This document shows, piece by piece, positions 4,328-62,989 of a DNA stretch of 64,000 nucleotides (positions within the stretch are counted from its first letter, which is position 1; every line of letters begins with the position of its first letter). The notes under the pieces were generated by a model that made no database searches, had not been told where the DNA came from, and was given only the letters and a program-made list of their open reading frames with translations. Source of the DNA: Diphasiastrum complanatum. Its lineage: Eukaryota > Streptophyta > Lycopodiopsida > Lycopodiales > Lycopodiaceae. A program made the position numbers and the translations under genes. The stretch spans positions 2,497,923 through 2,561,922 of the forward strand of contig CM055107.1 of NCBI GenBank assembly GCA_029204225.1, read 5' to 3'.

Positions 4328-7300
4328 CTAAGGCTCGTCAGAGTCATGGTAGGAACCATCATCTGAATCTGTGCCTGACTGCAGATCCCAAGGGTCTGTA
4401 GATGAATCAGAACTGGAGGGAGCCATATGCCGTGGTGTGGCCCTGGCTCTGCCGTGTGCTCTGGCTCTTTGCTGCGTGCTCTGGCTCTGGATCCTCCCCC
4501 TGCCTCTACCTCTGCCTCTGCCTCTCTCCCCTCCTCCGCCCCCCCTCTGCCTGCCCCCACCCCTGTGTCTACCCCTGCGTGTCTGTGTGTCAGGTGGCTG
4601 TGATCCAACGCCCTGGGATGGCCCTACCCACTGTGATGATGCCTGGCCGACGACTGCCTGTGATGCTCCACTGTTGTCTACAAAAAGTGAACTCAGCCCC
4701 CCCCCCTCCCAGAACCTCTAGGTCTCCCCCTAGGCCTACGTGTAGGAATGGCTGGCTCCTCCTCTATTTCCGCATCAGGGTCCACCAGCAAGTCAGCAAG
4801 GTCATCCCCCTGTGCCTCCGCCCCCATCTCCTCATCCTCCTCCGTATCCCCCTCAACCCACTCCTCCTCCTCCTGATAGTCAGCCCCGAGCTCCTCTCCA
4901 CCCTCCAAGCCCTCATCATCCCCCTCCTCATCCCTAGCCCTCTGCCTGTCTGCCCTCCTCGAACGCCGTAGAGCCCGTGCGTCAGCCTGCGCCTGTCTAT
5001 ATAGATCTATATAGATCTCATCATTCATCTCCTCCTGCGTGGGTGGTGCCCGAGGAGCAGCAGCTGCCGAATCCACCAAGCAAGTGTCAGGGTTCACCTG
5101 CAACCAAAAACAATACATTGTTGTCAGCAATTCATTGCATAATTCAAAAGCAATTCAGTTTGTCAAAGCACAGCAAGAAACAGGGGGTGATGATGTGACT
5201 CACCTCGAGCATCTGTCCCCCTCCTCGTGTGCGCCTCAGCATACGGCCGTTGTTCACAAACACCAACTGCCTACACTGCTCGATGGACAACCTCTTCCTC
5301 TTCTGCGTGTGATACAAGGCCCAGGTGCTCCAATTTCGCTCGCAAGCTCCCGCTGAACAGTCCTGTGCAAGGACTCTCTCGGCCAGTCGTCGCAGGTCAC
5401 CTGTGCCGCGCCCATGGTAGCCCCACCATGAAACAGGCCTCAACATATCCTCCCTCCGCCGACTCTGCTCTCCATCGAAAGGAAACTGGTAGCGCTCAAA
5501 GATCAGCAGCTGATATGCAATGTTAGTGAGCATCGGACCTGTTGGCAGAAGAAAAAACATGGCTCGTGTAAGTCCTCTTGAATTCACACACTAGCAATGA
5601 GCACACTACAGTCACTACTGTAGTACTTAGCCTACCAAGCAATTTATCACACGTACCTGGTCCAGGCCATACGCGCTCCGTGTACTCCACCCATCCCCGG
5701 TGCAGCTCCCGATCGTCCCGATCCCGAGTCTCGCGCCACAAGGGGTGCAATATGTGGGCTATGGCGTGGATGGGTTGGTGGAAGTAGTCCCATCTGGCCT
5801 CCCAGATACGTGAGATCTCGCGCCTCCTGCAGTAGGCAAATCACAACAATCATGTAACCATAGCTGCCATAGCATAAAAGAATCGAATCAGACTTGAGTG
5901 AGAAACAACAAACTAGACACTGAAGAGTCATACCTGTGCTCGACCAAGGCTGACGTCTGAATCCCCTCGCCGATGCGGTCCATGAACTCGTAAACGAGGC
6001 CGAGAGTGCACCCATCACAGTCTACCAGGCGCAGCACTCTGAAAATGGGTAGAAGGACCCCAGTAATCTCCTCAGAATCTCTCCAGAACGGCTCACCAAA
6101 CACAGTGGACCGGAAAAACGCCGCATGTGGGACGTCCATGAACTCTCGGAAGGACTCGTTGGAAACCATCTGCCGCAATGCGTCCTTCACTAATACTAAT
6201 CGCTCTAGCACCAAAAAGTAAAAGGCAAAGCGTGTGGGTGCTGGCTTCTTCAGGTTCAGGTGCGAGAAGGTGCGGAATAGGGCCAGCACACGCCTCTTCC
6301 TGGTAACAAAAGTGACCAGGCGCATGGCCGTAGAAGTGACCTGCAACACAAACATCCAGTGAAACATTTAGACAATAGTTGAGATGTGTTTAGCAGCATG
6401 GAGTAGGCGTCAATCAAGATAGCATAGCAAATGGAGAAACCAATACCTATCTGATACATAGAAGTGCACACAGGTCATGGATGAGCACCCTCCTGACGAA
6501 GCATCCTGCCTCGCAATGCCTCTCGTCTGGGAGGCATCCATGTAGCATCCACGGCTGCGATCTGTGCGCAAAACTCTCTGAACACCCAAGTGTCAGCAAC
6601 AGCAAAGGAAATGCCGCACTCGTAAAAGAACTGGCCAACAAGTCGAGTGCACCGGGCATGCTGCTCTCTCTGCCACCCGCATCGATCAAGGGTCTGCTGT
6701 CTGGGCCTAACCTCTCTGTGCTGTGCACATGGCGATCGTGGTCTAACACGCGAACCGGATGGCTGATCTGTGGGTGTATCACTCTCTCTGGGAGGACCTG
6801 TCGAACCATGTGCTGCATCTGTCGCCGAAGAAGAGGAGGGACGAGAAGGACCCGCTGCTGCTGATCCAACCTGCTCATGTGACGCTCTCCCCTCTGAAGT
6901 AATCCCTGCTGCTGCGGGTGGAACTGGAGTGGCACTGCCTGGACCATGCACTGCACCTAAACCCTGCCAAGAACGTGCTGTACTAGGCTCTGCACCCGTA
7001 GTAGGCCGTGCCTGCATACCTGTGACCCCTGCCTGTGAACCTGCAGCTGCTCCTGCCCCCTGTCCCTGTCTCTGTCCCTGTCCCTGTCCAGAAACCTGTG
7101 ATGCAGCACCCTGTCTCTGTCCCAGTCCCTGTCCCTGTCCAGAAACCTGTGATGCAGCACTGTGCCCGTACGTAATAGACAACCTCTGTCTCTCCTCATC
7201 GGAAATTTTGGGGCAATCAAATATGCCCAATGCCCGACCACCCAGCCCTCTGACCCTCAGTAAGTGAGCCCTAACCCTGGTAAGTGATCCTGTGAAGAGA

Positions 7301-7419
7301 CCACCACAATGCAAGCATCTCCATCTACGGACACCCGAGCCATGTTGTGTAGCCACATCCCCCTCAGTAAGCTCAACCTCGCCCCAAAGGCCTCGGCCCT
7401 GCACCGGCATCGTGTCCAC
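4328..7419 (-). pseudogene. hAT transposase with BED finger, core-deleted (copy 2)
   Basis: Exon 1 (7419 to about 6475) starts at ATG 7419 and encodes a BED zinc finger (CLHCGGLF...RVRAHLL), a Gln/Gly-rich repeat region and the DUF659 start 'FFYECGISFAVADTWVF'. The next usable exon (6340-5934) already encodes 'TFVTRKRRVLALFRTF' and 'GLVYEFMDRIGE', so the catalytic block with the GWTD and TDNASN motifs is missing; only about 135 bp separate the exons. Exons 5826-5657 and 5538-5204 carry the 'CERNWSTWALYHTQKR' dimerisation core. The last exon starts at 5097. A run of ten C at 4697-4706 leads to a stop at 4693, but a neighbouring frame stays open to 4328 and encodes an RG-rich tail ending in acidic residues, so a homopolymer frameshift is likely. 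Not a functional transposase. Confidence 0.8.
7028..7160 (-). repeat. coding tandem repeat in hAT copy 2 exon 1
   Basis: About 51-54 bp units containing 'GAAACCTGTGATGCAGCAC' plus CCCTGTCC/CTCTGTCC hexamer repeats. They encode the repeated 'AASQVSGQGQG' segment between the BED finger and the DUF659 region. The hexamer runs suggest replication slippage. Confidence 0.8.
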
Positions 7420-13486: not shown

Positions 13487-14883
13487 AGGATGGTTTCAAG
13501 ATGCTGCTCTTTTGGGTTATGGGGAGCCCCTACCTCCACCTAATCATTTTATTCAGACGCTTATTTGTTGTATGAAAAAGGCCGTAATGATGCATTCTTT
13601 TATCATTGACACTGATAGGGCTACTTGTTCTTTTGCTGGACCTGAGGATAAGGTTTTATGTTTGACTGATCTGTTGGGGACTTTGGACTCGGTTAAGATC
13701 TATCGGGAGTTTGTTAAAAAGAAGGATACTTTGAGTCTGGTAGAAGATTTGTATGGCCGGCTCAATGAATTTGTCGAAAGATTTGAAGAAGATGAAAGAT
13801 TTTTTAATCTACATATTAGGAAAGTCTTTGCGTGCCTTGAGAATGAGAATGGTAATTCCTCTGTTGATGTCCCACATACTTCTTCTTATGCACGGCTTTC
13901 ACCACACCCTTTGGTCTTTTTAGATGAGCTTGATGAGGACAGTGCTTCCCAACTTGAATTGTTTTCTCAAGATATCTGTGATATTGGTGATCAATCTTCA
14001 TATGACTTCTGCCAATCCAAAAACTGTCAAATTCCTTTTGTACCTAGCAGAACTATTGAGTTCAAATCTGCCTTTACCGCCTATAAGCATTGGAGCCTAC
14101 CTACTGTCAACTTTCTTGCCCCTGTGCCTATCGACCTTTGGATCTTGATGTCACATCTTACTGAAAAAGAAATAGAAGTTTGTAAGTCCGTTGCTTTACA
14201 CAAAAATCCTTCTCTTGAAGCTCTTGTAGCCTTTGATATTGTTGTTCATGACCAAATTTGAGCCTTCTCGTTGCCCTTCTGAGCAGACCTGGGCCAGAAT
14301 CAGAGGACACTTTGAGACTGGCTTTAATAGGATGAACCTTCACCAAGCAAGAATCTGGAACTGGAAGCGACCATTCTTTAAATGTAGATGTGGTGATAAA
14401 TGCAAAAACAATTCATCCATTATCTGGTTTGACCACGCCATTTGGTATATGATGAACAACCTAGTCAAGTTCTTCCCTGGTGCTTCTCTCCAAAACCAAA
14501 TGAATGCTTTCTTTCTATGGCTACATAAGCCCACCAGAGATGTGGTTAAGGCACACCTTACCTTTCTTTTCATTCGACAGTACATGGTTGATGCCACTAT
14601 TGAGCTTGCTAAAGATTCTTCTGCCAAATTCTTATCACACCTCGGCAATGCTGAAAACATACGAGAGATAGAGCGCCTCCTTAAACGACCAAGCTTTTCC
14701 ACTCTCCAAGATAAATACTTTCAAAACACAAGCAAAAGAACGGGCAAATTTAATCTCAACAATCCAAACTCCGTGGTATCTGCATCAGGGACAGGGAAGA
14801 GAAGGCGGTTTATTGGAAAGGAAGGGCAAAGTAGCACAAAGAGCGACCTACCTATCAAAAGGCTGAATTTTTACCGGGATTAA
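13487..14883 (+). pseudogene. unrecognised protein-coding locus, two overlapping frames
   Basis: Two long ORFs overlap in different frames: 13512-14261 (249 codons) and 14233-14883 (216 codons). The first ends at the TGA of 'CAAATTTGA'; the second is open straight through that point. Together they could encode about 450 residues, with acidic patches in the first half and in the second a Cys-containing 'FFKCRCGDKCKNN' segment and a basic tail (TGKRRRF, then PIKRLNF) resembling a nuclear signal. Codon use looks natural, and the locus resembles none of the transposon families nearby. A +1 change of frame at 14,250-14,260 is needed; it may be a mutation, an assembly error or, less likely, programmed frameshifting. 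I do not know the function. A decayed host gene or an unfamiliar element gene are both possible. Confidence 0.5.
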
Positions 14884-27785: not shown

Positions 27786-27791
27786 TAGTTA

Positions 27792-28228
27792 TGGACTCGG
27801 CTCATTACATTCGCCGCGTCCATTTACATTTACTTTATTTTATGCATAAGCAGACCTTGGGCCCTTTTTTATTCATTAGTGACACTTAGACTATATGGTT
27901 GGCCTTTGGCTGTATTACTCATTATTAGGCCATTTGGACATACTACTGGAGAGTGAGGGCCTTCTTGGAGGGCGCACTATTTTCCCTCCCAGTTGGGCCC
28001 TAGCCACCGGAAGCTTCCTTTTAGGGCTTCCTCTTGGCTATAAGTAGGGAAACTGTGTCATTTGTTATTCAACTGATGATATTGATCTCTCTCTTTAGCC
28101 TCCTTAATCTCTCTCTTTCCTGCTTTCTAGGGTTAAGTCTTGCTTATGTGCTGCTTTCATAGCTTAAGTCTTGCTTATGTGATGCTTTCATAGCTTAGCT
28201 CTAGATCAGCTGTGGCTCTATTCGTAAC
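27792..28228 (+). repeat. 5' LTR (family L1)
   Basis: It starts TGGACTCGGCTC and runs to just before the PBS at 28,230. It shares its first part with 20,233 and 38,155 and its last part with 18,362. It contains a TATA motif (28,038) and a CT-rich tract typical of a plant LTR leader. A 31-bp segment is tandemly duplicated at 28,133-28,163 and 28,164-28,194; the homologous LTR at 18.5 kb has a single copy. Confidence 0.82.
28038..28046 (+). promoter_or_regulatory. LTR TATA box
   Basis: CTATAAGTA, preserved at 18,377 and 38,401 in the other LTR copies. It is the probable core promoter of the element. Confidence 0.6.
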
Positions 28229-28229
28229 T

Positions 28230-28241
28230 TGGTATCAGAGC
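28230..28241 (+). other. primer-binding site
   Basis: TGGTATCAGAGC directly downstream of the 5' LTR, complementary to the initiator tRNA-Met 3' end. Confidence 0.88.
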
Positions 28242-28904
28242 ACTTTCCTGAGCACAATCTGGAAACTTTTTTTTTTTGCCTTGCCTTGCTCCTCCATCGC
28301 TGTTCCTACAGCTCCATTGCTGCCTTGACAGCCCTGCTCCTTCCACTCCTTCCTGTCCAGCACTCCCCCTGCCTTGCCCCCTCTCTTCCTTGCTGCCCAG
28401 CGCTCCTCCTCCTTCCTTCCATCGTTGTCCCTGCCTTCCGACCTGTCACTTTCATCCGATATTTTTCCAGTTTGCAGCCATCTTCCACAATCAGTTCCCA
28501 GACTGTCCAGCGCCCATCCTCATCCAAGAATTACCCAATTCCAACATCGTTTGCTATTCCAAACCGCCAAAATTCTTCAACCTGTACATCGCTGCCCCAG
28601 CACTTCCGACTTGTCACTTTTGCCTATTTTTTTCTCCGTTTCCAGCCATCTTTTACAGCTTATCATAAGGCTCTCCAGCGCCCATTCTTCACCACATTTC
28701 ACGGAATTCTGACTCCGTTTGATCTTTCAAATTGACATTTTTCCCCTGGCTGTAGCGCATTTTTACAACCTTCGTGTTTCCCACTTTTCAATTGTTAATT
28801 GCTGCCCTTTTTTAGTTGTGATAATATTGGTTGTAATAAGCTAATTTGGGGTGACGACAAGAGTCCGCTCCCTCAAGTTTTCGTCTATTCCTTCCACTAT
28901 CATT
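28242..28904 (+). other. gypsy leader, C/T-rich
   Basis: Untranslated leader rich in CCTTCC/TCCAGC pyrimidine words, similar in style to 18,549-19,060. Overlapping proline/serine/leucine-rich ORFs on it reflect base composition. Confidence 0.55.
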
Positions 28905-29365
28905 ATGGCACATTCACCTACCCCGAGTGAGACTACTCAAGAAACCTTATCCGATCAGTTTCGTCGCATGGATGAGACCCTTTCTGGCCTCGTTCATCGC
29001 TTCGATATAGTTATGACGGGCTTTGCTACTATGCAATCACAGATTGATTCTTTACAGCCTCATGGTCCTGGCAAAGCTCCTGTTTTTCCTTCATTTGGGA
29101 CTCCCCCTCCATTGGGATTTCCATCTTCCTCTGCTAGTCCGCCTGGTGGTGGACCGTTTGTTCCACCTAACCCACCTCCTGGTTTCTTTTCACGTCCCCC
29201 ACTTCCTGAGCCACACTTTGCTCGAGACTTTCGTGATATGGTACAACTTGCTACCTATTCCGGTTCCTCTAATGGGAACTTATTAGAGAATTGGTTTGCT
29301 AAGCTTGACACATATTTTCAGATCTACCCTAAGACTGATCCTCAGAAGATCCAGTTGGCTGCTTT
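28905..29365 (+). pseudogene. gypsy Gag N-terminal part, interrupted
   Basis: ATG 28905 (context CATTATGGCA) opens a Gag reading frame. It has a polar N-terminus, a Pro/Gly-rich linker (SPPGGGPFVPPNPPPGF) and the capsid-like start 'LATYSGSSNGNLLENWFAKL' and 'IYPKTDPQKIQLAA'. At 29,358-29,365 the frame meets the target duplication of the hAT element. The frame resumes at 35,049 with 'ALHLDGRAATWWQFI', the usual next block of plant gypsy Gag. Capsid proteins of this type package the element RNA in the cytoplasm. Confidence 0.85.
29358..29365 (+). repeat. hAT target-site duplication, left copy
   Basis: GCTGCTTT, repeated exactly at 35049-35056. Eight base pairs is the hallmark length for hAT insertions. 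Confidence 0.93.
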
Positions 29366-29440
29366 CAATGTTTCGAGGGCTTGTTTCGAAATGCGTTCGA
29401 AACGCGTTTGAAACGACTGGTTCTGGTTCGAAACGGGATT
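29366..29440 (+). repeat. left terminal and subterminal repeat of hAT element 3
   Basis: Begins CAATGTTTCG and contains several (T)TCGAAACG copies and GAAACGACTGGT. It pairs imperfectly with 34,965-35,048. Confidence 0.85.
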
Positions 29441-30309
29441 ATTTTTTTAGGGTTTTTTTTTTTTTGAATGTGTTTTTGAGGGTTTACACATGTCATAGAC
29501 AGTCTAGTAACAAGTAGATACATCCAATTTCATGAGAATGCTCTAGAGAATGCAATTCAAGAGGAGAAGCTGTAGTATCAGGATTCAGTATGCGGTCATT
29601 GCCAACTGGTCACGACTTAGTGCTCACTTGACACTTTCCTCAGTCAATTGTTGATATTGTCACACCATTCATCATACATATTACAATCTCAATTTTCAAA
29701 CATCCAGGAACTTCCAAAAATTGTAAAGTTTAAACAGTAAAGTTACAAACTAATAACTATTATCTATAGAAGTTAGAACTTTCAACTTTCAACTTACTAC
29801 TTACTACTTAGAAGTTACTAGTGAGTACTTACAAGTTTGAAGTTAGAAGTTACAACTTACAAATTACAAATTGCAATGCACTGACCAGTGACCACTAACT
29901 TGAAAGTAACTTCAAGTTGGCAGTGGGCACTAAGTTCTAACTTCTAAGTAGTAAGTAGTAAGTTCTAACTAGTATTAAGTAATAAGTAACTACTAACAAT
30001 TTTGAATATACAAATCAGACTTCAGTGAATCACAAATTACAAAAGTTTAAACTTTAAAGTTTAAAATAAACTGTAAAAGCAATGATGTTATCAATAATCA
30101 TGCTGCATAAATAACAAGAGTGTCAAGCGTGGCCTCGGCCCTCAAGGCTCAAGCCTGAGGCCCCATGAGTCTGAAGTCAACTGTCATATGTAAACAGTAA
30201 TATGTATAACTACTATGCTAGAGCCCTCAGCCTAGAGTATGCCACTAATAACTATCATCTATGATCTATGCTGAGCAGTGAGTGCCCCCCCTCAATGCCC
30301 ATCCAGGCT
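29441..30309. other. 3' non-coding region of hAT element 3
   Basis: Low-complexity sequence built from AAGTT, AACTT, TACTACTTA and ACAAATTACA words, between the transposase stop and the left end. No ORF. Confidence 0.6.
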
Positions 30310-33300
30310 CTAGCCTCTAGCTGCCCGCCTCGGACGCTGTCGTCGTGGAGGCACTGGCATGTCCTCAGGCTCAATGTCATCCTCCCCATCATCAGAGTCA
30401 CCCTCATCCTCCTCATCCGATCCCTCACCCTCAGTGGTGGATTCCTCATCTGACTCAGAGCTAGAGGGACTCTTAGAGGTGTCTGAGACTGCTGCATGGC
30501 TCGGGCCCTCTCCTGCGCTCCTGGTCCTGCGTGCTGCAGCTCGAGTGGTAGGCCCTGCGCAATGCACACAAGGAAATTGGAATCAGGACTTAGGCTCGAC
30601 TCTCGAGTCTCGACATGTCATATTACTTTTAAGTTTTAACTTACAATTTACAAATTACAAATTAGCAATTACAATTTACAATCTAGTAATCTACTATCTA
30701 GTATTTCTACAAAATTTCAAAGTACTGAAAGCCTACTAATGTAACGCAGTGAATCGGGGAATTGGGCATCGAAATCAACCTGCAGCTGCTAAGGCCTCCT
30801 GATGGAGTAGAGCATAGACATCCTCCTCCTCTTGTGATCTTGGTGGCAAGTCCGGAACCTTTGCCACATCGATCTCATCGGGATTAATCTACGAAAATTG
30901 AAATTAAACCAAGATCTTGATTCTCAATAGTAAGTACTGGTAAACGATTAAAAAAAAATAGCAAATTTGAAATGTAAATGTTGAAACTTGAAACTTGAAG
31001 CCTGAAGGTTCTAACTTCTTAGTGTAGAGTCTAGACTTTACTATCTAGACAAATCATGATTCATGGTACATACTAGACTCTATAGAATTCAGATTAATGA
31101 TTTAATCATGAATCATGATTCATTACTTGTATGGGCTCCCCAGTCTCTCTCAGCTTCTTCACAAGCCGTAGGTTGGCATGCACATACACCAACCTCTCCA
31201 GCTGCGCAGTAGAAAGTTTGTTCCTCCTCTTCGTATGAATCAGAGAGAACACGCTCCAATTTCTCTCACATGCAACTGCTGCGCAATCTTGTGAGAGGAC
31301 GTGGATGGCAAGTTTCTGCAACTTGGGAACATCATTGGCATACTTCATCCACCATGAAACAGCGCACAATTGCCCTTCCCTCAGCATGGCAGCTGCACGA
31401 CCGAAATCGAGGCGCTCGGTCCTGAACATTCAACATTCATCACCATTCAAATTTCAAAATATATTAGTAAATACTAAATGCTTACAAATTACTACTATTA
31501 AGTTTTAACTAGCAACTAGCTTAAGCCTTAGACTTCAAAGTTCATACATATTACATATACATACTACATAGATGAATACATATATGATATTACATACCTG
31601 GGTCCTGAATACATATTACAATTTACTAATTACATAGTACATAGTACATACCTGAATAAATTCAAGTCATCCATGAGTGCATCCTGATCCCTGGGATCAG
31701 GATAGATAGAGGCGACGTAGGAATGCCATCCTTGCCTGAGCTCTCGATCATGGAATTGATCCTCCGTCCTCCATAGTGGATGAAGCAAGCAAGCCACGGC
31801 ATGCAGAGGTTGATGGAACCACTGCCATCTGCCTAGAAATAGGCCCCTTACTTCTTCCAGCCTGCAAACAATCAGGAGTTAGGACTAAGGAGTGAAGTTT
31901 GAGGCTTGAGCATTCAAGTCTCAAGAGTCAAGATTCAAGAACTATTAAGTTTTAACTAAATTCTAATCATGAATGTCAATGAACAATGAACATTGAAGAT
32001 TCAAGAATCAACTTTGAAACTTTTAACGTAGTTACTAGACTCTAGTAATATACCTGTCAGGAGCCATGGTGGTGCAACTCTGAAGCTGCTCTCCCAGCTT
32101 ATCCATAAACTCATAAAGAAGGCCTAAGGTGGAACCCTCTCTATCAGTAAGGCGAAGCACGCTATAGATAGGCTGCATGGATATGACAATGGAGCGTGCA
32201 TCGTCCCAAAATGAAGTCCCCATCACGATCGCCTCAAATCTCCTGGCCTTGGCCTCTCGTGATCGGCCCCACTCTGCCCAATGGGGTGAAACCACTGTCA
32301 TCCTCAGGCTTCCATGCACTTTTACGAGCCGCTCCAAAACAATGAGCATATAGGCAAACCTAGGATGAAAATCATGAAATAAGATTTGTAATTGGTCATA
32401 GCCTATAGGCAACAAGCAAGCTATACTATATAGCAAAATTCAAATTCTATGAGCACTGAAACTTGAAGCTAAAACACAATTGCAATTTTCAAATCAAAAA
32501 ATTGGAAACAGGTTGTCAGGTTGGAAGTTGGAACTTGGTTACCTAGTGGGGGCAGGCCTCAAGAGATCCAAGGTGGAATAGGACCTGAAGATGCTCAAGA
32601 CCCTCTGTCTCTTGGTGACAAATCTCACCAAGAATCGTGCCATGTCTACAACCTCCTTGACCCAGGGTAATCTCCCATTGTCTTCAACTAGGAGGTCAAG
32701 ACAATGTGCAGCACATGGACTCCAGAAAATCCAAGGGTACTTCTCATTCACCATCTTCCCCATGGCAACACAATTGGACGCGTTGTCCGTGACAACCTGC
32801 ATTGGAATTCTGACAAAGGTCGAATCATAACTCATGAACAATGAACATTCACCATTGAGCATTCCGGAAGCAAATGCAAATGCAAATTGCAAATGTAAAT
32901 GGCAAGTGCAAATTGCAACGTTCAAAACAATAATCACGATTCACAAAATGTAAGTTGTCACTTGTAACTTACTAAGTTCTAACTTCAAACCTGAGAGCTC
33001 AATGTCGAAAGTTTTAAAGTTGAAACTTGAAAGTGGCAAGTGGCAAGTGCATACCTGGACAACATTCTCTTTTCCGACCTCCTCAATGGCCTGTGAGATG
33101 TACTCAAACAATCTCCTGCCATCCAATGCCATGCCTGGCTCCGACGTATCAATGGATCTCAAAAACATGGTGCCCGTGCAAGAAGACACCAATATATTCA
33201 CAAGATGGCGCCTCCTTGCATCGGTCCAACCATTTGATATTATAGTGCATCCAAACCTAAAACATTCGACAACACTTTCAAGTTTCAACTACTAAGTTGC

Positions 33301-34349
33301 AACTTGCAATTTGCAAATTTGGAGATTGAAATTTCAAAGTTAGAAACTTCAAACTTGAAAGTACTAATTTCTAAAGTAGTAAGTGGCAAGTGCAAAGGTT
33401 TTGAAGATGTAAGGTAACAGGTTACAGGTATACCTCGCCCATGACTTCCTAATGGGCTGTAGGTCAGCATCCACGGACTGCCGCTCAGCATGTAGCTCTC
33501 TCGTCCTCAGCTGCTCCATGGTCGGGCCCTCCCACTCAACACCGATACGAGATACTGCTCGCATCATATCCCTCCATGCAGGGGTCTGTGCCACATGAAA
33601 AGGGAGGTCACACAAGTAAAAGCACCTCCTAACAGCAATAGCAGCTGCATCCCTATGCGACTGCTGGAAGGTTGTCACAAAAACATTCTTGCCTCTCACA
33701 TGTCCTCGACCCCGTCCCCTAACAGTGCTACCAATAGCACTACTGCCGGCCCCACCAATTGGCACTACAGGAGTCTCTCCAGAAGAAGAAGGTGGAATGG
33801 ATGCTGCAGCGGAGCTAGTGCCGGCTACATGTGCTGGCTGCGATGGGGAATCTTGGCGCTCTGCCGCACCTGTAACAATAACATTGGTTTTACAACTTAC
33901 TACTAACTAGTTACGCAGCAGGCTTTAGGTGATAAATTATAGTCACTGGTCAGTGAGAGAGCTCAGGGAACAGTCACTAATTACTTAATACTCATTAGTA
34001 AATTGTAATCAAAGTTTAAAGTTATAGAATAAACTTTTAAGTTTTAGCTTTAGATCAAATTTCAAATTTTCAATCAATGTCATTGATCAAACAAGATTCA
34101 GGAATCACCTGTGCCTGAAGTAGTGGCAGGAGAGTCGTCCCCGATCCTGGCAATCCTCAGTGACTCTGGGGCTTGAGTGCAAACGGCGATCTCATATCCT
34201 CGAAGACGTAAAAGATGCGCCCTGATTCGAACGGGGCCACCTCCATAAGTGTTCCCGCAATACTTGCAAGTCCACTTCTTCGTGCCTGATGTGCCATAAG
34301 CTGAATTAAGGGTGACGTGATCCCATAAGGGATCCCGCTGTCTGGGCAT
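30310..34349 (-). CDS. hAT transposase (BED + DUF659 + hAT dimerisation), nine exons, open
   Basis: A cut-and-paste transposase acting in the nucleus. Minus-strand exons: 34349-34109, 33869-33434, 33256-33055, 32796-32543, 32359-32054, 31861-31652, 31421-31127, 30888-30780 and 30554-30310. All introns are GT-AG, phases agree, and the total is 2,298 nt (765 aa). Residues 28-57 form a BED finger (C28, C31, H45, C57). Exon 2 has a basic RGRGRGHVRGK patch and the DUF659 start. Residues 235-238 are GWTD and 296-301 TDNASN, the probable first and second catalytic Asp regions. 321-324 is the CxxH typical of hAT enzymes. 'LLYEFMDK' at 458-465 may hold the catalytic Glu. The dimerisation domain spans about 571-636 with ERNWS at 602-606. 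The C-terminus is Ser/Asp/Glu-rich, then basic. No lesion was seen. Exon 8's donor (GTTGAT) is weak, the least certain joint. Confidence 0.9.
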
Positions 34350-34526
34350 TGCTAATAGCTATCTAGTGTCAACAAAACAATAACTGTATTAAATTCAGAC
34401 TTCAAATTAAAAACTAATCCTAAATTCTAATTTCAAAACGGTAAACCTATGCTCTAAGTTCTAACCTCAATCTATCCTCAATCTATCCCTATCCTCTCTC
34501 TCTCTAGACTCTCTCTCTCTCAATCT

Positions 34527-34790
34527 CACACACACACACACGTCACGACAGTCTCAAGACTCACACACACACACACCACACAGTGCACACACACAAACAC
34601 ACAAACAAAAACACAGTTAAAAGTTTAACACACCACCACACACACAAACACACCACCACACTCAAAGTTGAAAGTTCACACACATGTCACACACACACAC
34701 ACACTCCCTCTACTTCACAATGCACACAAACACACAAACACTCCCTCTCTTTCACACACACACACACACACACACGTCACAAACACACAA
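34527..34790 (+). repeat. (AC)n-rich microsatellite cluster
   Basis: Repeated CACACA runs interrupted by CAAACACACAAACA and CTCCCTCT, lying between the transposase start and the right end of hAT element 3. Confidence 0.95.
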
Positions 34791-34797
34791 ACACTCC

Positions 34798-34882
<85 letters not shown>
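34798..34882 (+). repeat. (TC)n microsatellite
   Basis: A pure TC run of about 80 bp directly after the AC cluster, inside hAT element 3 and upstream of the transposase gene on the minus strand. Confidence 0.97.
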
Positions 34883-34884
<2 letters not shown>

Positions 34885-34964
34885 GGGTTTTTCTAACGTG
34901 CCAAAGAGTGAAAACACTCACCTCTCGGGCCCCCGCTGTATCGCAAAACAATTTGCGATTTTTC

Positions 34965-35048
34965 ACCAGTCGTTTCGAAACGGGCCCATTTCGTACGTTC
35001 CGTTTCGAACCCGTTTCAGCGTTCGAAATGCGTTTCGATGAAACACTG
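34965..35048 (-). repeat. right terminal and subterminal repeat of hAT element 3
   Basis: Read inward on the minus strand it begins CAGTGTTTCATCGAAACGC and carries GGTTCGAAACG, GTTTCGAAACG and GAAACGACTGGT copies matching the left end. Confidence 0.85.
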
Positions 35049-35056
35049 GCTGCTTT
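35049..35056 (+). repeat. hAT target-site duplication, right copy
   Basis: GCTGCTTT, identical to 29358-29365. Confidence 0.93.
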
Positions 35057-35230
35057 ACATTTAGATGGACGCGCCGCCACGTGGTGGCAGTTTATCGAGC
35101 TGATCCTGATCGGGAAGGGCTCCATTTATGGCATATCTTTCGCCGTGACCTCCGTCATGCTATGATTGATCCTCAGTGGCTCGACCGCCAACATCAGTGG
35201 ACTGCAGGGAGTTTGCCTTTGAAGATCTTT
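35057..35230 (+). pseudogene. gypsy Gag continuation after hAT insertion
   Basis: It reads 'LHLDGRAATWWQFIEL', then shifts frame near 35,100-35,110 into 'LHLWHIFRRDLRHAMIDPQW', the next Gag block. The frameshift shows that this Gag was dead, or died, independently of the hAT insertion. Confidence 0.8.
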
Positions 35231-36813
35231 ACAAACGTTGCGATAGGGTTTATTGGTGAGGGCGGTTCTAACAAGAAGAGAAAAGATTTGGTAGTGCAAA
35301 ATATGCGGAGCACTACTTTTGTTAACCTAGTTTCAGCACATCTGAAAAACTTCATCAAACATAACTTTGTGTTTTGGTGGTGGTCACAACAATTTAAAGA
35401 CTGCTTGTTGAAATTTTCTTTGAATGTTGTTGTTTCGGTCATTGACTTTGTAGAGAATTATTCGTTCAAGATGCAGAATGAGATATAGTCCATGCACTGG
35501 TGGTCTAATCAAGTCATGATACTTGTGCTCATAACGTATGTTAGAAACTCTGTAGGTGCAGCTAAAAAGACTCTTCATTTTTACATATCAGACGATAAGC
35601 TGCATGACACCCTATTTGTACAACACTATCTACTACTGCATGACAATTGGTCGAAAGAGAACAGGTATAATCTGAGGTGTCATTGGTTGTGGTCAGTCGG
35701 TCCGCGGTGTCCCAATTCAAAGCTCAAGGGTCTTTTTTTCTTTGTGGCCAGGTATATTTGTTGGGGTTCTCACTATCTGTTATTATCTGAAGTTTTCAAG
35801 TTTGTTACTTTAGATAGTACCAAATTTGGTACTTAACTATAAGACTTTAAGTAAAATGGTCCGTCGTGTAGTACCAAAATACATTGTTCTGGAGTACCAA
35901 TTTTGGTACCCCTCAAAAATATAGTACCAAATTGGGTCTATACGGGACACCCAAATATAGACTTACCAAATTGGTACTAGATAGGACACTAGATTTGGAA
36001 CTACGGATACCGTTTGCAAGCACTATTTATTGTAGCCTACACAAAAATGAAAAATCTAAGAATCAGTTTGCTTTTTGGCCAAATATTATCACTTGATAGG
36101 TCTATAATTGATGCATAATTTTTCTGCCTCAGGTCATGGAAAAGGCGAGAACGACGGAGCGAGCGTGATCATCAAGGGAACTCTCACTCACAAGGAGTTA
36201 AAACCAGATGGTTGGCCCTTGAAATGTGCAGCAGATGTGGTCGCATATCTGAAAGAAACATTTAGGCCAAAAGGAAAAGGTTACAGCTGCAGTACAAGAA
36301 GGGTTTTCTAGCTGGTCAGCAAGGATGAGGTGCAATGTGATGTGAAATGGGATTGTCACCACATCACAAGATCACGCTCGTTTGTTAGCAGAAGAATTTT
36401 TGTCAATGTTAACAAAAGAATCTTCCTATGTTTGCATTGATTCTACTACTTAGATAACAACGTTTTTGTCTGCTATCAACGATCCTACTTGGCAGCTACT
36501 CGGATAGCTGAGACAGTTAGCTGAGACTCAGATATTCTATGGGTGTTCAAGCAACTATTGTTCGATACAGAATCGGATTTACAGTGGCTCAACCATAGAT
36601 GGCTTCCTATCTAATCTGTCCGTAGTATAATGGTAGTATAATAGTCTTGTACCTACCTATCAAAGGCACAATGACAACCTGATTTTGATCATTTATTGGC
36701 AATGGTAGCTCATCTTGGACATAGGATTTGTCAGGAACTTGTTCTTCTACTTTCTACGGACAGTTTCAGTTCTTTCTTTGTTCTTACAAACTGTAGATTA
36801 TTATTAAACTAAT
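35231..36813. other. unassigned stretch inside the gypsy element
   Basis: No recognisable gypsy domain or gene lies between Gag and the RNase H part. ORFs of 60-110 codons (for example 35,492-35,836) show no known motif. It contains the GTACCAAAT palindrome cluster at 35,811-35,985. Confidence 0.4.
35811..35985. repeat. cluster of GTACCAAATTTGGTAC-type palindromes
   Basis: An exact 18-bp palindrome, AGTACCAAATTTGGTACT, lies at 35816-35833. It is followed by near-palindromic or half copies at about 35,872, 35,895, 35,921 and 35,965, all built on TAGTACCAAAT or ACCAAATTGGTAC. They are spaced roughly 25-55 bp apart. Confidence 0.8.
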
Positions 36814-37950
36814 TTGAGCAAGGAACAGGGAATTAAACTTAATACTCCTACTGAAATCACAGAATCAACACAACGACCTTTAATTGAGATGTTTCTTCCT
36901 TCCGTCCTCTCACACTTGTTGAGGCGATGTCTCTTGCCAGTACTTTACAGCATAAGTACTCTGACACCCTTCCTTCTCGCTTCACTCGTCCTTCTGCTTC
37001 ATCTTTTCCCGCTATGTCCACCCCTACACCTGTCTAGTACTTTTCTTTGGACTTCTGATTGTCAGTCCGTGTTTGATACTCTTCGTCGTGCTGTTGCTGA
37101 TGTTGTCGTTATGTGTTTACCACAGTTTGATCAGAAGTTTCTTGTTGAGACTGATGCTAGTAATGTTGGTTTGGGTGCTTTATTTCGCCAGTCACAATGC
37201 ATTTTTGCTTATGAGTCGCGTCGTCTTCGCTCTTATGAGCAATGTTATTCTGTGCATGAGAAAGAGCTTCTTGCTATTATCTATGCTCTTAAGAAGTGGC
37301 GTCATTATCTTTGTCGAGTTCCATTTGACATTATTACTGATCACCAGTCTTTACGTTATCTGTTTTCTCAACGTGACCTTAGTGATCGTCAATTTCGTTG
37401 GTTGCAGTTTTTACAGTCTTTTAATTTTTCCATATTGTATCATCCTGGTCGTGCTAACACTGTTGCTGATGCATTATCTCATCTTCCAGCTTTGTTGAAT
37501 ACACTCGTTTCTACTATTCCTACATGGTTTGATGATCTACCTGCAGCATACCTTACATGTTCAGATTTTCGTGATGTTTATAGTTTTGCCCCACCTATTT
37601 CGTCCCGTCCTCATCAGGTTTACTCCATTGTTGACAACCGTCTTTATCGTTATGATTCTCTTTGTATTCCTAGTTCCTTGGGTATCCGTTCCCAATTGTT
37701 GTCGGATGCTCATTCCTCTCCTGTTGGGGGTCACTTTGGTTTTCAGAAGTCTTATGCTCGTCTCAAAGACCATTTCTATTGGCCCTCTCTTCGATCTAAG
37801 CTTGCTGTACTTATTCGTACCTGCCCTTTCTGTCTTTGTAATAAGTACTCCCGTGCTAAGTCTGCTGGTTTGCTCCAAAGTTGGCCTATTCCTCATCGCC
37901 AGTGGACTGATATATCTATGGACTTTAGCTTGGTCACGAGTCATGTATGA
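36814..37950 (+). pseudogene. gypsy Gag end fused to RNase H and integrase zinc-binding domain
   Basis: One 378-codon ORF. In a second frame near 36,900-37,030 a Gag-end-like 'SLASTLQHKYSD' is readable. The main frame has RNase H ('KFLVETDASNVGLGALF', 'YSVHEKELLAIIYALKKWRH', 'FDIITDHQSLRYLF', 'YHPGRANTVADALS') and the H2C2 domain ('SSPVGGHFGFQKSYARLKDH' then CPFCLCNK), ending at the start of the integrase core ('WTDISMDF'). The whole reverse transcriptase is missing between Gag and RNase H. A frame change near 37,940 precedes the next part. Confidence 0.88.
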
Positions 37951-38125
37951 TGGTAGTTGACAAGTTCTCAAAACAGGCACATTTTATACCCGTTCGCAGT
38001 ACTATCACAGCAGAGCAGTGTGCATATTTGTTCCTATCAGAGATTTTTCGCCTGCATGGATTTCCTTGTACTATCCTTTCTGATCGGGATAGTAAGTTTA
38101 CATCTATATTTTGGACAGAGCAGTT
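37947..38125 (+). pseudogene. gypsy integrase core, truncated
   Basis: It reads 'MMVVDKFSKQAHFIPVRSTI' and 'TILSDRDSKFTSIFWTE', the second catalytic Asp region, then jumps directly to the purine tract and 3' LTR. The catalytic Glu block and chromodomain are deleted. Confidence 0.88.
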
Positions 38126-38154
38126 GGGTCTATTTTTTGTGCCAGGGAGAGTTA

Positions 38155-38499
38155 TGGACTCGGCTCATTACATTCACCGCATCCATTTACATTTACTTTA
38201 CTTTATGCATAAGCAGGCCTTGGGCCCTTTTTTATTCATTAGTGACACTTAGACTATATGGTTGGCCTTTGGCCTTATTACTCATTATTAGGCCATTTGG
38301 ACATATTATTGGAGAGTGGGAGCCTTCTTGGAGGGAGCACTATTTTCCCTCCCAATTGGGCCCTAGCCACCGGAAGCTTCCTTTTAGGGCTTCCTCTTGG
38401 CTATAAGTAGGGAAACTGTGTCATTTGTTATTCAGCTGATTATATCTCTCTCTTTAGCCTCCTTAATCTCTCTCTTTCTTGCTTTCTAGGGTTAAGTCT
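38155..38499 (+). repeat. 3' LTR (family L1), right-truncated
   Basis: It matches 27,792-28,140 over its length, including CTATAAGTAGGG at 38,401, and stops matching after GGGTTAAGTCT. It is preceded by AGGGAGAG, a probable polypurine tract remnant. Confidence 0.83.
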
Positions 38500-41898: not shown

Positions 41899-42400
41899 TG
41901 TTGGAATGTAAATGGAATTGCTTACATTACCATAGGTTACTTTGACCCAAAAGGTCGAGAGTTGTGTAACCATGGTCATTTATTATATTAGGCCTACTAA
42001 ACTTAGAGTTAGCTAAGTTAGTATGAAATTAACTTGGTAGGGACTCATGGGTCCACTAGGCCTAATTGTGACATTAAGTACCCCAACTTGACATATTGGA
42101 GGTACCTTATTCTTTCTATGTAACTTATAAAAAGTTGGATAGTCAATAGTCAAGTAGTTGGAAAGCCAATAGTCAAGTAGTTGGATAGCCAATAGTCATG
42201 AAGTTAGATAGTCATCTTGGACTATATATATGTGTGCATCCCATTTGTATAAGACACTTTTTTAAGCAATACTGACTGTTCTCCTTGGCTGTCCACGAGT
42301 TTCTACAAGAGGGTTTCTAGCCATCTCTCTCTTTCTTTTGAGAATGCTTTGTGTGATTGAATAGTTAAGATTCTGGATCCTTAGGCTTCTATTTCCTACA
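41899..42400 (+). repeat. copia 5' LTR
   Basis: 502 bp, TG...CA ends. It includes about three and a half tandem copies of an AGTTGGATAGCCAATAGTCA-like unit (42,134-42,215) and a TATA-like CTATATATATG at 42,222. The same features recur in the 3' LTR. Confidence 0.95.
42222..42232 (+). promoter_or_regulatory. copia LTR TATA-like element
   Basis: CTATATATATG within the 5' LTR, about 180 bp before its end and just after the short tandem repeats. It is the likely promoter core. Confidence 0.5.
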
Positions 42401-42414
42401 TCGTATCAGAGCCT
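42401..42414 (+). other. copia primer-binding site
   Basis: TCGTATCAGAGCCT directly follows the 5' LTR. It differs at one position from the common TGGTATCAGAGC tRNA-iMet complement. Confidence 0.8.
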
Positions 42415-42998
42415 TTAGGTGATCATATTGCTTGCAAGAGGGCGCCCAATAGGAAGCTATCTTCTTCCCCTTCTGGTTGCAAAAAATCATCAAGCTGCTG
42501 ATTTTTGCAGGAGAAGAATCTGTTCATCTTCTTATAGCTTTTTTGCAGGAAATTGCAGGGCACCTTCATCTATTTGGGAGCTAGCAGTAGGGCGCCCATG
42601 CTCAAACCAATTGCACGTGATCTTGACTCAATTGCATGCTGAAAATTTCAGATTTATTTCTTAAATGAAGATACATGTGTTTTGGACACATTTCTTGCTG
42701 AAATTTCCCTGTTGGTGAGCTTGGAGTAGGGCGCTACCATCAGCTCTATATGCACATAGTGTGCACTCTTTTCAGCCACAAATTTTTGGTTTTGGTTTTG
42801 GCTTCATTCGAAGTCTACCTATTTGTGAGCATTCTGTTTTTTTGTGCAGAAATCAGCCACCTATTGCATTACTTGTTGAGCAAATTGCATGTGGAGTATT
42901 GCAATCTATTGTGCTCATAATTTCAGCTTTGAGGTTGCTGCCTTTGAGTAGATTTTGTCTTGTCTATTTCCTATCTACTACAAGCTGATTTTTCTGTT

Positions 42999-43268
42999 AT
43001 GGCTAAAGAATCGGAGTCTATTGGTTCTTTATTTAATGAAGATAGGCTGGATGGCACAAACTATTCCTTGTGGTGCTACATGATAAAGAACCTTCTAATT
43101 GCTAAAGGTTTGTGGGAAGTAGTTAATGGTGACGAAGAAAGGCCGCCTACCTTGGCACCTATTACACCATCTAGAACAACTACTTCTTCAACTACGGAGG
43201 TGTCTTCCGATAAGCAAAAGAAGTGGGATCGACGAGATGCACAAGCACATTCCGTCATTGCATTATGA
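42999..43268 (+). pseudogene. copia Gag N-terminus, truncated
   Basis: ATG 42999 starts 'MAKESESIGSLFNEDRLDGT' and 'NYSLWCYMIKNLLIAKGLWE', the conserved N-terminal region of plant copia Gag. It ends after 'AQAHSVIAL' with a stop created at a deletion junction. The capsid remainder and zinc knuckle are missing. Confidence 0.85.
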
Positions 43269-44233
43269 GTGAAGAGATCCATCCTTCCACAAAGCTTGTG
43301 AAAGTGCATGATGGAAGCAAAGTTCAAGGTGTTAATAACACCTCTTATCCTATCAAAGGTATTGGAGTGATCCCCATTATCTTACCCAATGGTGAGGAAA
43401 AGTACATTCGTAATGTACTTTATGTTCCAAAAATAAAAAAGAATCTCATTTTGGTCTCTACAATTATGAACCAAGGATTGGTTGTGGAATTCAAAGAAGA
43501 CAAATGTCTTATCAAAGACCCAAAGAGATCTCTTATGATCATTGCTTCGGGAACATTACGTGGTGGATTGTTCCTTATGGATACCTATGAGCGAAGAGCT
43601 TCATCATCTTTTTGTCTTGTTGCATCAAGTTCACATTCTTTGGAGTTGGCTGAATTATGGCATGCTAGGTTTGGACATCTCAACTTTGCTAGCTTGAAGA
43701 TGTTGAAAAGATTCAATATGGTTGAAGACATTCCTAATATTGAGCATTCCGAAGGACATGTATGCAAAGGATGCATACTTGGAAAATTTCAAAGGCAAGC
43801 TTTTCCAATTGATGGAACTATTCGAGTTGATGGCAAATTTGATTTGGTTCATAGTGATGTATGTGGTCCAATGAGGACCGAATCCATTGGAAGGTGTAAG
43901 TACTTTGTTACTTTTATTGATGACCTTTCAAGATTTACATGGATTTATCCTATGAAGGCAAAATCTGAAGTTTTTCAACGCTTTAAGGATTTTCTAGCAA
44001 TGATAGAAAACCAGTTTGGGCACTCTTTGAAGATCTTACGTACCGACCGAGGAGGGGAATATATAAAGAATACGTTTGGTACTTATCTTCAAAGCAAAGG
44101 TATCCATCATCAAATGACAACCCCTTACACACCTCAACAAAATGGTGTTGCAGAAAGAAAGACTCGCACTATCATGGAGATGGCTCGATGCATGCTCAAG
44201 GCAAAGGGCCTACCTCACAAGTTTTTTGGCTGA
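43268..44233 (+). pseudogene. copia protease end, GAG-pre-integrase and integrase core
   Basis: The frame is open to 44233. It starts inside the protease ('VLYVPKIKKNLILVSTI' marks its end). The GAG-pre-integrase zinc domain follows ('ELWHARFGHLNFASLKML', CKGCILGKF). The integrase core has 'FDLVHSDVCGPM', 'YFVTFIDDLSRFTWIY', 'LKILRTDRGGEY' and 'TPYTPQQNGVAERK', so the D, D and E catalytic blocks are all visible. A homopolymer T6 near 44,222-44,227 shifts the frame and ends this ORF. Confidence 0.9.
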
Positions 44234-45242
44234 AGCGGTTATAACGGCGGCTTACATTAGTAATCGGTGTCCTACTAAAGCCTTGAAGGTATTAACTCCT
44301 TATGAAGTTTGGTATGGTAAGAAGCCTATTGTTTCTCACTTACGCATCTTTGGATGCACGGCTTATGCTTTCATTCCCGATAAGCTAAGAACCAAGCTTG
44401 ATGATAAAGGAGTTAAATGCATATTTGTTGGCTATAGTAGTGAAAGCAAAGGCTATAGGTTGTTCAATATGGATACTAATAAAATCATAGTACGTCGTGA
44501 TGTTCATTTTGATGAAAAGACCTCCTATGATGTTGCACCCACTCATGTCATGAACGGGGACTTCCCCCATGATGCATATGTTGAAATATTTACAGATTTG
44601 GTTTTGCCGTCTAATCATGAAGAGAAGGGACTGCCATCTACTTCTAGTGGACAGCCCACTACTCCTTCAATTTTGCAGCCCATAGTTCATCAAGAAGAAC
44701 CTATTTATGGTGAAGAGCAGCCTGTTGAAGACATTGGACAGCAAGGTCCAATTTCGGAAAACATTGGACAACAAGGTCCAAGTTCGGAACACTTTGGACA
44801 GCAAAGTGTTGACAAAGGTAAGGCTATTGGACAGCCCAAACCAATCCCTAAATGGTTGTTGCAGACTTTGCAGGACAGCAAAGTGGATCATTTTTATGAA
44901 GGGAAGACTTGTGCCTCTACTAAATCAGTAGAATTTGCTGATTTTTATACTTTTGCTCTTATTTCTATTGAGGATGGTGCAATAGAACCTGTTTTTTATG
45001 AGCAGGCCAGCGGAGTAAAATGTTGGGAGGATGCGATGCAAGAGGAGTACAACTCACTCATGAAGAACCACACTTGGGTTCTTGTTGATCTTCCACATGG
45101 GGCTGGAATCTTCATCTCTCAACAACGATACATTGCGCAGATGTTGAAGCAATTTTTTTTTTTAAGTCACCGCAAGTTGATGCATGCAATGGATGCATTA
45201 GTGAAAAGTTTCATGCGAAACCTTTTCAATTTGATGTTTTAG
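44234..45242 (+). pseudogene. copia integrase C-terminus, linker and RT scraps
   Basis: After the frame change the reading continues 'FLAEAVITAAYISNRCPTKA' and 'GYSSESKGYRLFNMDT', normal for copia. The linker has repeated IGQQGP motifs. RT begins with 'CWEDAMQEEYNSLMKNHTWV', then jumps from 'LVDLPHG' to 'GIFISQQRYIAQMLKQF', so the whole catalytic part of RT with its YVDD box is deleted. Confidence 0.88.
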
Positions 45243-45268
45243 CAAAGGCTGAAAAATTCAAGCACTCT

Positions 45269-46141
45269 TTGGAACCTTTTTGTACTAATCGAGGAGGGAG
45301 TCAACATGTGTCAATTAGTACTTTTGTTCAAAGTGTTAAGAGTGAGCATTTGTTTGGAGAGAATTTTTCATTATTGGAAAAATCTTCTATGTCATCCCAT
45401 GCCTCTTCGAGGGACAGCTTTGATGACGCCATCGTTGATGCATCTCTTGATAGTTTGCTAAATTTTTATGATGAAGATATTGGACAGCAGGTTCAGTCAT
45501 CTTCTTTTGGTCATTTACAGCCCATTTTACATCATGAGCAGTCCATTATGCTTCAGGAACAGCCTGCGGAAGATTATGGACAACATGGTCCATGTTGGGA
45601 ACACTTTGGGCAGCAAAGTGTTGAACAGCCCATAACAGTTCCTTGTTGGCTATTGGAGACTTTGTAGGACAGCAAAGAAATATCTTACTACGAAAGGAAG
45701 GCACATGCCTCTTTAAAATCAGTACCTCTTGCTGATTTTTTTGGTTCTACACTTACTCTTCATCATGATGTTTGTACATTGCCTATTCTATGTGAGCAAG
45801 TCATTGATGGTAAGGTTCGGGAGAATGTGATGCCAAAAGAGTTTGGTACTCTTTTGTATTGTCCTTATGATAAGAAGTATTTTCGAATGATGTGGGAGCC
45901 TATGATGGATTACAAGTCCATGTTTCGACTTATTGCCGAGTTTATGTTGGTTCCCTACTTCGGATGGAGCATGCAAATCCTCACCCTTCGACTTGATGCT
46001 TCATTATTACGCATTCTTTTCCTTTTATATGTTGGACATGATTGGAGATGAGATTTCGACTACTTCGGAGCGAAGTTTATTTGGCGACATGAAGTTCGGA
46101 CAGCAAGTTGCATTTTCGAAAAGTTACTTCATGTTATGTTA
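45269..46141 (+). pseudogene. copia 3' remainder with duplicated linker segment
   Basis: Bases 45,480-45,760 repeat the linker at 44,640-44,960: EQPxEDxGQxGP, EHFGQQSV, a WLLxTL end, then DSK and SVxxADF. The copies have diverged and the second has a TAG after 'LLETL'. No RNase H domain is identifiable in the rest. Confidence 0.7.
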
Positions 46142-46162
46142 TGCATTTCCATGTAAGGAGGG

Positions 46163-46664
46163 TGTTGGAATGTAAATGGAATTGCTTACATTACCATAGG
46201 TTACTTTGACCCAAAAGGTCGAGAGTTGTGTAACCATGGTCATTTATTATATTAGGCCTACTAAACTTAGAGTTAGCTAAGTTAGTATGAAATTAACTTG
46301 GTAGGGACTCATGGGTCCACTAGGCCTAATTGTGACATTAAGTACCCCAACTTGACATATTGGAGGTACCTTATTCTTTCTATGTAACCTATAGAAAGTT
46401 GGATAGTCAATAGTCAAGTAGTTGGAAAGCCAATAGTCAAGTAGTTGGATAGCCAATAGTCATGAAGTTAGATAGTCATCTTGGACTATATATATGTGTG
46501 CATCCCATTTGTATAAGACACTTTTTTAAGCAATACTGACTGTTCTCCTTGGCTGTCCACGAGTTTCTACAAGAGGGTTTCTAGCCATCTCTCTCTTTCT
46601 TTTGAGAATGCTTTGTGTGATTGAATAGTTAAGATTCTGGATCCTTAGTTTTCTATTTCCTACA
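46163..46664 (+). repeat. copia 3' LTR
   Basis: 502 bp, aligned without gaps to 41,899-42,400. The differences I see are at the TATGTAAC(C/T)TATA(G/A)AAAG block and the TTAG(TT/GC)TTCT block. Confidence 0.95.

Positions 46665-62913: not shown

Positions 62914-62986
<73 letters not shown>
62914..62986 (+). repeat. (GA)n microsatellite
   Basis: A GA run of about 73 bp immediately beside the 3' end of the LINE at 63,000. On the minus strand it continues the pyrimidine tail of that LINE. Confidence 0.97.

Positions 62987-62989
<3 letters not shown>

What the first reader, a model, noticed from the sequence alone, without database searches (positions are those of the whole stretch)
29366..35048. 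Complete hAT transposon with an uninterrupted nine-exon transposase gene
The ends (CAATG.../...CACTG), an exact 8-bp target duplication (GCTGCTTT) and a transposase gene that reads in frame across eight GT-AG introns (765 codons, with BED, GWTD, TDNASN, CxxH and ERNWS blocks) are all present. Every other hAT copy in the window is broken. This looks like a recently inserted, possibly autonomous member of a BED/DUF659 hAT lineage.
Basis: partly seen in the sequence, partly recalled or inferred. Interest (0 to 1): 0.88.

Follow-up and report, generated by a model that had tools for sequence, protein, structure and literature searches.

The report
Intact-frame hAT transposon, enzyme probably dead
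A jumping gene of a well-known plant type sits here whole, with its enzyme gene unbroken, but one of the three amino acids the enzyme needs to cut DNA has been replaced, so it probably cannot move by itself.

Summary
In detail: a 5,683-bp hAT element (29366-35048) with an exact 8-bp target duplication lies inside a Ty3-type retrotransposon. A nine-exon minus-strand gene (34349..30310) gives 765 aa with BED, DUF659 and hAT-dimerisation regions and eight GT-AG introns.

The genome search returned 23 other distinct insertions forming a near-star tree. This copy has the fewest private changes of 13 near-complete copies (0.57% against 0.98%), so 'recent' holds relatively. 'Possibly autonomous' is not supported. 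Aligned to Hermes, the catalytic triad is residues 234, 297 and 602, not 238, 297 and 461. Residue 234 (Hermes D180) is asparagine here but aspartate in 101 of 105 homologues and in 19 of the 21 insertions covering it. One other insertion shares the asparagine, so the change may predate this insertion and the element may have been moved by another copy's enzyme. The '99% copy' about 39 kb away is the same insertion repeated across an assembly gap.

Verdict: ordinary new member of a known kind; open frame, probably dead enzyme.

The parts
29358..29365 (.). left target-site duplication GCTGCTTT
29366..35048 (-). hAT element, 5,683 bp (transposase on the minus strand)
29366..29374 (+). left terminal repeat CAATGTTTC; three subterminal TTCGAA words begin within the first 70 bp of the element
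35040..35048 (-). right terminal repeat CAGTGTTTC (read on the minus strand); three TTCGAA words within the last 80 bp
35049..35056 (.). right target-site duplication GCTGCTTT
34109..34349 (-). exon 1, BED zinc finger (C28, C31, H45, C57)
33434..33869 (-). exon 2
33055..33256 (-). exon 3; codon 234 at 33232-33234 is asparagine where Hermes has D180
32543..32796 (-). exon 4; D297 (Hermes D248) and C321-x-x-H324
32054..32359 (-). exon 5; R378-F379 in place of Hermes R318-W319 (the R codon spans the exon 4/5 joint)
31652..31861 (-). exon 6
31127..31421 (-). exon 7, hAT dimerisation region; E602 (Hermes E572)
30780..30888 (-). exon 8
30310..30554 (-). exon 9, acidic tail and stop codon
34508..34884 (.). 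(CA)n/(CT)n simple repeats upstream of the transposase start; gapped against other copies (seen in L038)
27787..38499 (+). host Ty3-type retrotransposon; LTR pieces 27787-28140 and 38150-38499, 15 mismatches in 350 aligned bases; RNase H and integrase zinc-binding domains in 36808-37947

Best explanation
This is a full-length hAT DNA transposon of the plant BED/DUF659 lineage. It inserted by cut-and-paste into the gag region of an older Ty3-type retrotransposon, leaving an 8-bp duplication (shown by the sequence; the word gag is inferred). It belongs to one burst of at least 24 insertions in this genome and has the fewest private changes of the 13 near-complete ones compared (shown). Its transposase gene is still open from start to stop across eight introns (shown by sequence; splicing inferred). 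The encoded enzyme would fold like Hermes transposase, with an RNase H-like core (predicted on its closest relative), but the first of its three catalytic acids, residue 234, is asparagine (the letter is shown; its role rests on alignment and a model). It therefore most likely cannot cut and join DNA normally (inferred from mutants of Hermes and Kat1). The same asparagine in one other insertion suggests that the change arose in their common source, so that this copy was probably moved in trans by a sister's working enzyme and is now a drifting passenger (inferred).
Against: The Hermes alignment over the first catalytic block is weak by itself (domain E 0.0069; 0.48 with the smaller profile) and leans on the D-x-W motif and the model. 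The mutants I read of were to alanine or cysteine, not asparagine, and Hermes D180C could still form hairpins and join targets with Mn2+ (PMC2533014, passages). Under neutral decay an open frame in this copy had a chance of about 0.05, so some recent constraint cannot be excluded. L038 covers only part of the element; the four changes it shares exclusively with this copy are all C to T, so recurrence is possible, and other pairs share as many or more over longer stretches (L012 and this copy 4, L017 and L035 7).
Confidence: 0.78

Rival explanations
1. One reading: a recently inserted, autonomous hAT whose transposase works; asparagine 234 is tolerated or another acid (D238) takes over the metal.
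For: Open frame with eight GT-AG introns; fewest private changes of 13 near-complete copies; residues 297, 321, 324 and 602 kept; D238 is D in 83 of 106 homologues; Hermes D180C kept some activity with Mn2+.
Against: Position 234 is N in 0 of 105 homologues; D238 aligns with Hermes D184, not D180; neutral replacement ratio; a second position conserved in 71 of 73 homologues (578) is also changed; no near-identical independent copy among the loci returned.
Confidence: 0.12
2. The open frame is kept because the protein, though unable to cut, is used: as a repressor that binds element ends or as a domesticated host factor.
For: Frame open although chance was about 0.05; zinc finger, dimerisation region and ends all present.
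Against: Replacement ratio neutral; still flanked by ends and a perfect duplication inside a retrotransposon, unlike what I would expect of a domesticated gene; best homologue in one protein search 46% identical.
Confidence: 0.06
3. The asparagine or the open frame is an assembly artefact.
For: The assembly repeats this stretch across a 10-kb run of N at the window's end, and the repeat is rich in single-base indels near the gap.
Against: Both versions read the same codon at 234; the window version reads an open frame of 765 codons, which random errors would not create.
Confidence: 0.04

Closest known systems
Plant DUF659 (PF04937) hAT transposases; closest sequence P0001 (unnamed source, 46%), then Ceratopteris richardii proteins (37%, 34%)
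   Same: CCHC-type BED finger, DUF659 catalytic block, D-x-W, TDNAS, CxxH, TRF, CERNWS and dimerisation region
   Different: Window copy has N at the first catalytic position; 46% identity at best
Hermes (housefly hAT; 6dww, 8edg)
   Different: About 15% identity; F in place of W319 in 111 of 114 plant-lineage homologues; first catalytic D missing in the window copy
Kat1 of Kluyveromyces lactis (hAT-derived)
   Same: Catalytic D-x-W ... D ... E layout with BED domain and CxxH (PMC4763223, passages)
   Different: Kat1 is domesticated and active; this is a transposon copy that is probably inactive. No sequence comparison with Kat1 was run here

Membership tests
hAT superfamily | 8-bp target-site duplication | tested here: met
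   Exact at the window copy and at 5 of 8 other distinct insertions with both ends found; 2 with one mismatch, 1 with four
hAT superfamily | short terminal inverted repeats (CA[A/G]TG type) with subterminal repeats | tested here: met
   CAATGTTTC / CAGTGTTTC; 6 of 7 TTCGAA words of the element lie within 80 bp of an end
hAT superfamily | C-terminal hAT dimerisation region PF05699 | tested here: met
   2.5e-11 in exon 7, 5.6e-10 in the spliced protein, over the curated cut-off
hAT superfamily | RNase H-like core with helical insertion, as in Hermes | tested here: met
   Met for the closest relative P0001 by predicted fold; the spliced window protein itself was not folded
DUF659 (PF04937) plant hAT lineage | DUF659 domain over the curated cut-off with BED finger | tested here: met
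   DUF659 6.4e-51, 172.5 bits against cut-off 34.7; BED 22.8 against 20.6 in exon 1 alone, not listed for the whole protein
Autonomous hAT element | open transposase frame between two intact ends | tested here: met
Autonomous hAT element | complete catalytic triad D-D-E (Hermes D180, D248, E572) | tested here: not met
   Residues 234, 297, 602 are N, D, E
Autonomous hAT element | near-identical copies or empty sites showing recent movement | tested here: inconclusive
   The 23 other distinct insertions differ from this one at 2.1-3.4% of compared sites, and the 99% neighbour is the same insertion repeated in the assembly; but only the 30 best of 4,874 candidates were scored and empty sites elsewhere were not searched
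Autonomous hAT element | transcription, splicing and transposition | not testable with these tools
   No RNA or assay data at hand

The most novel reading that the evidence does not exclude
A sublineage of a plant hAT transposon lost its first catalytic acid yet kept an open frame and went on spreading in trans, with its cutting-dead but end-binding transposase acting as a brake on its own family.
Probability: 0.07. Interest if true: 0.4.

Novelty: new member of a known kind. Interest (0 to 1): 0.2.

Why it matters
It is a clean example of why an open transposase frame plus perfect ends does not make an element autonomous: the active site has to be checked against a solved structure. It also describes the ends, gene structure and copy tree of a DUF659 hAT family that I found under no name in the searches made. 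A side point of some use: this lineage carries phenylalanine where Hermes has W319 (111 of 114), so a survey that demands W319 as a mark of activity (PMC6027215, passages) would set the lineage aside.

Tried and rejected
Rejected: the 99% copy at C16:2571923-2576333 as a second insertion; its downstream flank equals the window's at 99.87% over 1,500 bases, and window 30170-30648 and 31111-58561 recur beyond a 10,000-N gap, the last figure being where my fetched stretch ended. Rejected: the identities printed (92-97% for most long matches) as a measure of age; counting substitutions only and leaving out the simple-repeat stretch, the 23 other insertions differ from the window copy at 2.1-3.4% of sites. 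Rejected: D238 and E461 as catalytic. Led nowhere: an open frame at 13482-14258 tried to name the organism (451 candidates, none at E 1e-5); the genome paper PMC10823260 is not held. Not done: searches for end-only (non-autonomous) relatives were sent and never answered; a search for empty sites elsewhere was planned and never sent. In the structure comparison ISCth4, P-element and retroviral-integrase entries follow Hermes at much lower Z (11.3 and below against 21.7-27.0). Literature: DUF659 with hAT and transposase gave 5 papers, hAT transposon with lycophyte 2; I saw these as listings and read passages of one (PMC3985635); none of the titles or abstracts shown describes this family. Most subscription journals are not held.

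Dropped before counts: for the tree and the change counts I kept 24 of the 29 non-window loci, one of each near-identical pair (leaving out L016, L019, L023, L025) and merging L036 into L035; L020 was kept in the tree but left out of the majority. The private-change count used 13 near-complete copies of 24. Bases 5091-5526 of the element (simple repeats) were left out. In one search, stops were read column by column without regard to frameshifts, and some splice losses are alignment gaps at the donor, so lesion counts are approximate.
Full report
What is there. The element runs from 29366 to 35048 and is bounded by exact copies of GCTGCTTT. It interrupts an open frame of a retrotransposon; with the flanks joined, that frame continues across the site to a stop at 35165. 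I take the frame for gag by position and motif (recalled); Pfam named no family in its first part. Downstream, 36808-37947 holds reverse-transcriptase-type RNase H and integrase zinc-binding domains. LTR pieces at 27787-28140 and 38150-38499 differ at 15 of 350 aligned bases, about 2% per side, so the host element is older than the hAT copy's own private change of 0.57% suggests for the insertion.

Gene. On the minus strand nine exons from 34349 to 30310 give 765 codons and a stop, with GT-AG at all eight introns and phases that keep the frame. Single open frames match BED (exon 1), DUF659 (exons 3 and 4) and the hAT dimerisation region (exon 7) over Pfam's cut-offs; the spliced protein matches DUF659 at 6.4e-51 over residues 196-347 and the dimerisation region at 5.6e-10, while BED is not listed for the whole protein. 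The closest relative, P0001 (761 aa from a 2,718-base contig, so perhaps a transcript), aligns across seven of the eight joints; the first joint lies in a linker that does not align well. No RNA was available.

Relatives. 120 proteins scored at E 0.001 or better among the 7,987 candidates that were scored; the best are P0001 (46%) and Ceratopteris richardii (37%, 34%), followed by others from ferns, conifers and flowering plants. DUF659 is described as an RNase H-like family that includes hAT transposases and is found mostly in green plants (PMC3985635, passages). The genome has 1.74 Gb in 5,176 contigs, and the listed hits with coordinates above a megabase lie on contigs numbered up to 23. 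I suspect a clubmoss such as Diphasiastrum complanatum; that is recall (chromosome number and genome size) and no call tested it.

Copies in the genome. The element search scored the 30 best of 4,874 candidates and returned 30 loci, one being the window itself. Of the other 29, L020 is the window's own insertion repeated across a 10,000-N gap that starts exactly at the window's end; L035 and L036 adjoin on one contig and were taken as one insertion; and four pairs (L013/L016, L018/L019, L022/L023, L024/L025) are 99.2-99.8% identical over 5.6-7.1 kb, consistent with alternative haplotypes. That leaves 23 other distinct insertions. Both ends could be placed in nine distinct insertions including the window's: six have exact 8-bp duplications, two differ at one base, one at four. 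L010 and L012 carry the same word in flanks without detectable similarity. The tree is nearly a star, with terminal branches of 0.9-2.1% for the other copies and 0.8% for the window copy with its repeat.

Is the frame special? Eleven loci (nine distinct insertions) cover all nine exons, and each of the 11 carries at least one stop, frameshift or lost splice site; the nine distinct ones have 2 to 6 such lesions, mean 4.1 (approximate, see Tried and rejected). L038, which covers exons 1-3 and part of 4 only, shows none in that part. Scaled to this copy's lower divergence, an open frame by luck had a chance of about 0.05, and that at least one of ten copies would be open about 0.18. So the open frame is mildly unexpected, not strong proof of use. 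The window copy has 30 private changes where 51 are expected from 12 near-complete sisters (Poisson P 0.001), and differs from the majority at 1.09% of sites where the 23 others differ at 1.14-2.40%: it is the youngest of those compared, though not by a wide margin on the second measure. Its changes against the majority are 18 replacing to 7 silent, against a neutral 2.39 to 1 computed from the copies' own spectrum; private changes are 10 to 3, pooled sisters 187 to 65 with 11 stops. No purifying selection is visible, though the numbers are small.

At 234 the window copy has asparagine. Of 46 positions conserved at 90% or more it departs at two, 234 and 578; of 118 conserved at 75% or more it departs at 16. 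Of the 24 insertions, 21 cover codon 234: 19 have D, and this copy and L038 have N; L020 repeats the window's reading. Kat1 D310A is inactive in cleavage and joining, and changes at Hermes D180 affect transposition (PMC2533014, passages). Against this, Hermes D180C could still form hairpins and join targets with Mn2+, and I saw no test of asparagine. I conclude that the enzyme is most likely dead, or at best crippled.

How it probably got here. L038 sits elsewhere with a different downstream flank and shares four changes exclusively with this copy within the 1,906 bases compared, codon 234 among them, against a mean of 0.6 per pair of copies; however all four are C to T, L012 also shares four with this copy over about 5,180 bases, and one other pair shares seven. 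If the sharing is common descent, the asparagine predates both insertions and they were moved by the enzyme of another copy. That is an inference of moderate strength.

Verdict. The sequence observation is confirmed; the reading as hAT of the BED/DUF659 lineage is correct; 'recent' is correct in relative terms; 'possibly autonomous' is contradicted by the active site. It is a new member, unnamed in my searches, of a well-known kind.

Noticed in passing
window 64000 / G000:C16:2561923-2571922 and beyond: The window ends exactly at a 10,000-N scaffold gap; beyond it window 30170-30648 and 31111-58561 recur at 99.2-99.9%, with single-base indels concentrated near the gap: an unmerged assembly repeat that could be mistaken for a recent duplication.
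   Followed up: yes
L010 and L012: Two distinct insertions carry the same 8-bp duplication ACCTTCAC in flanks without detectable similarity; chance or target preference.
   Followed up: partly
window residue 379 and homologues: The DUF659 lineage has F (111 of 114) where Hermes has W319, a residue implicated in hairpin formation in Hermes but not essential in Kat1.
   Followed up: partly
window 41899-46664: Copia-type element with integrase at 43214-44230 and direct terminal repeats 41899-42400 / 46163-46664 that are 99.2% identical: probably a young insertion.
   Followed up: no
window 7410..5198 (-): A second DUF659-lineage hAT remnant, 38-46% identical to this transposase in four blocks (BED, central, dimerisation), with no detectable match to residues 52-337, which hold the DUF659 stretch.
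   Followed up: partly
window 11576-12501 and 62969-63892: A 0.9-kb repeat at 95% identity on the same strand.
   Followed up: no
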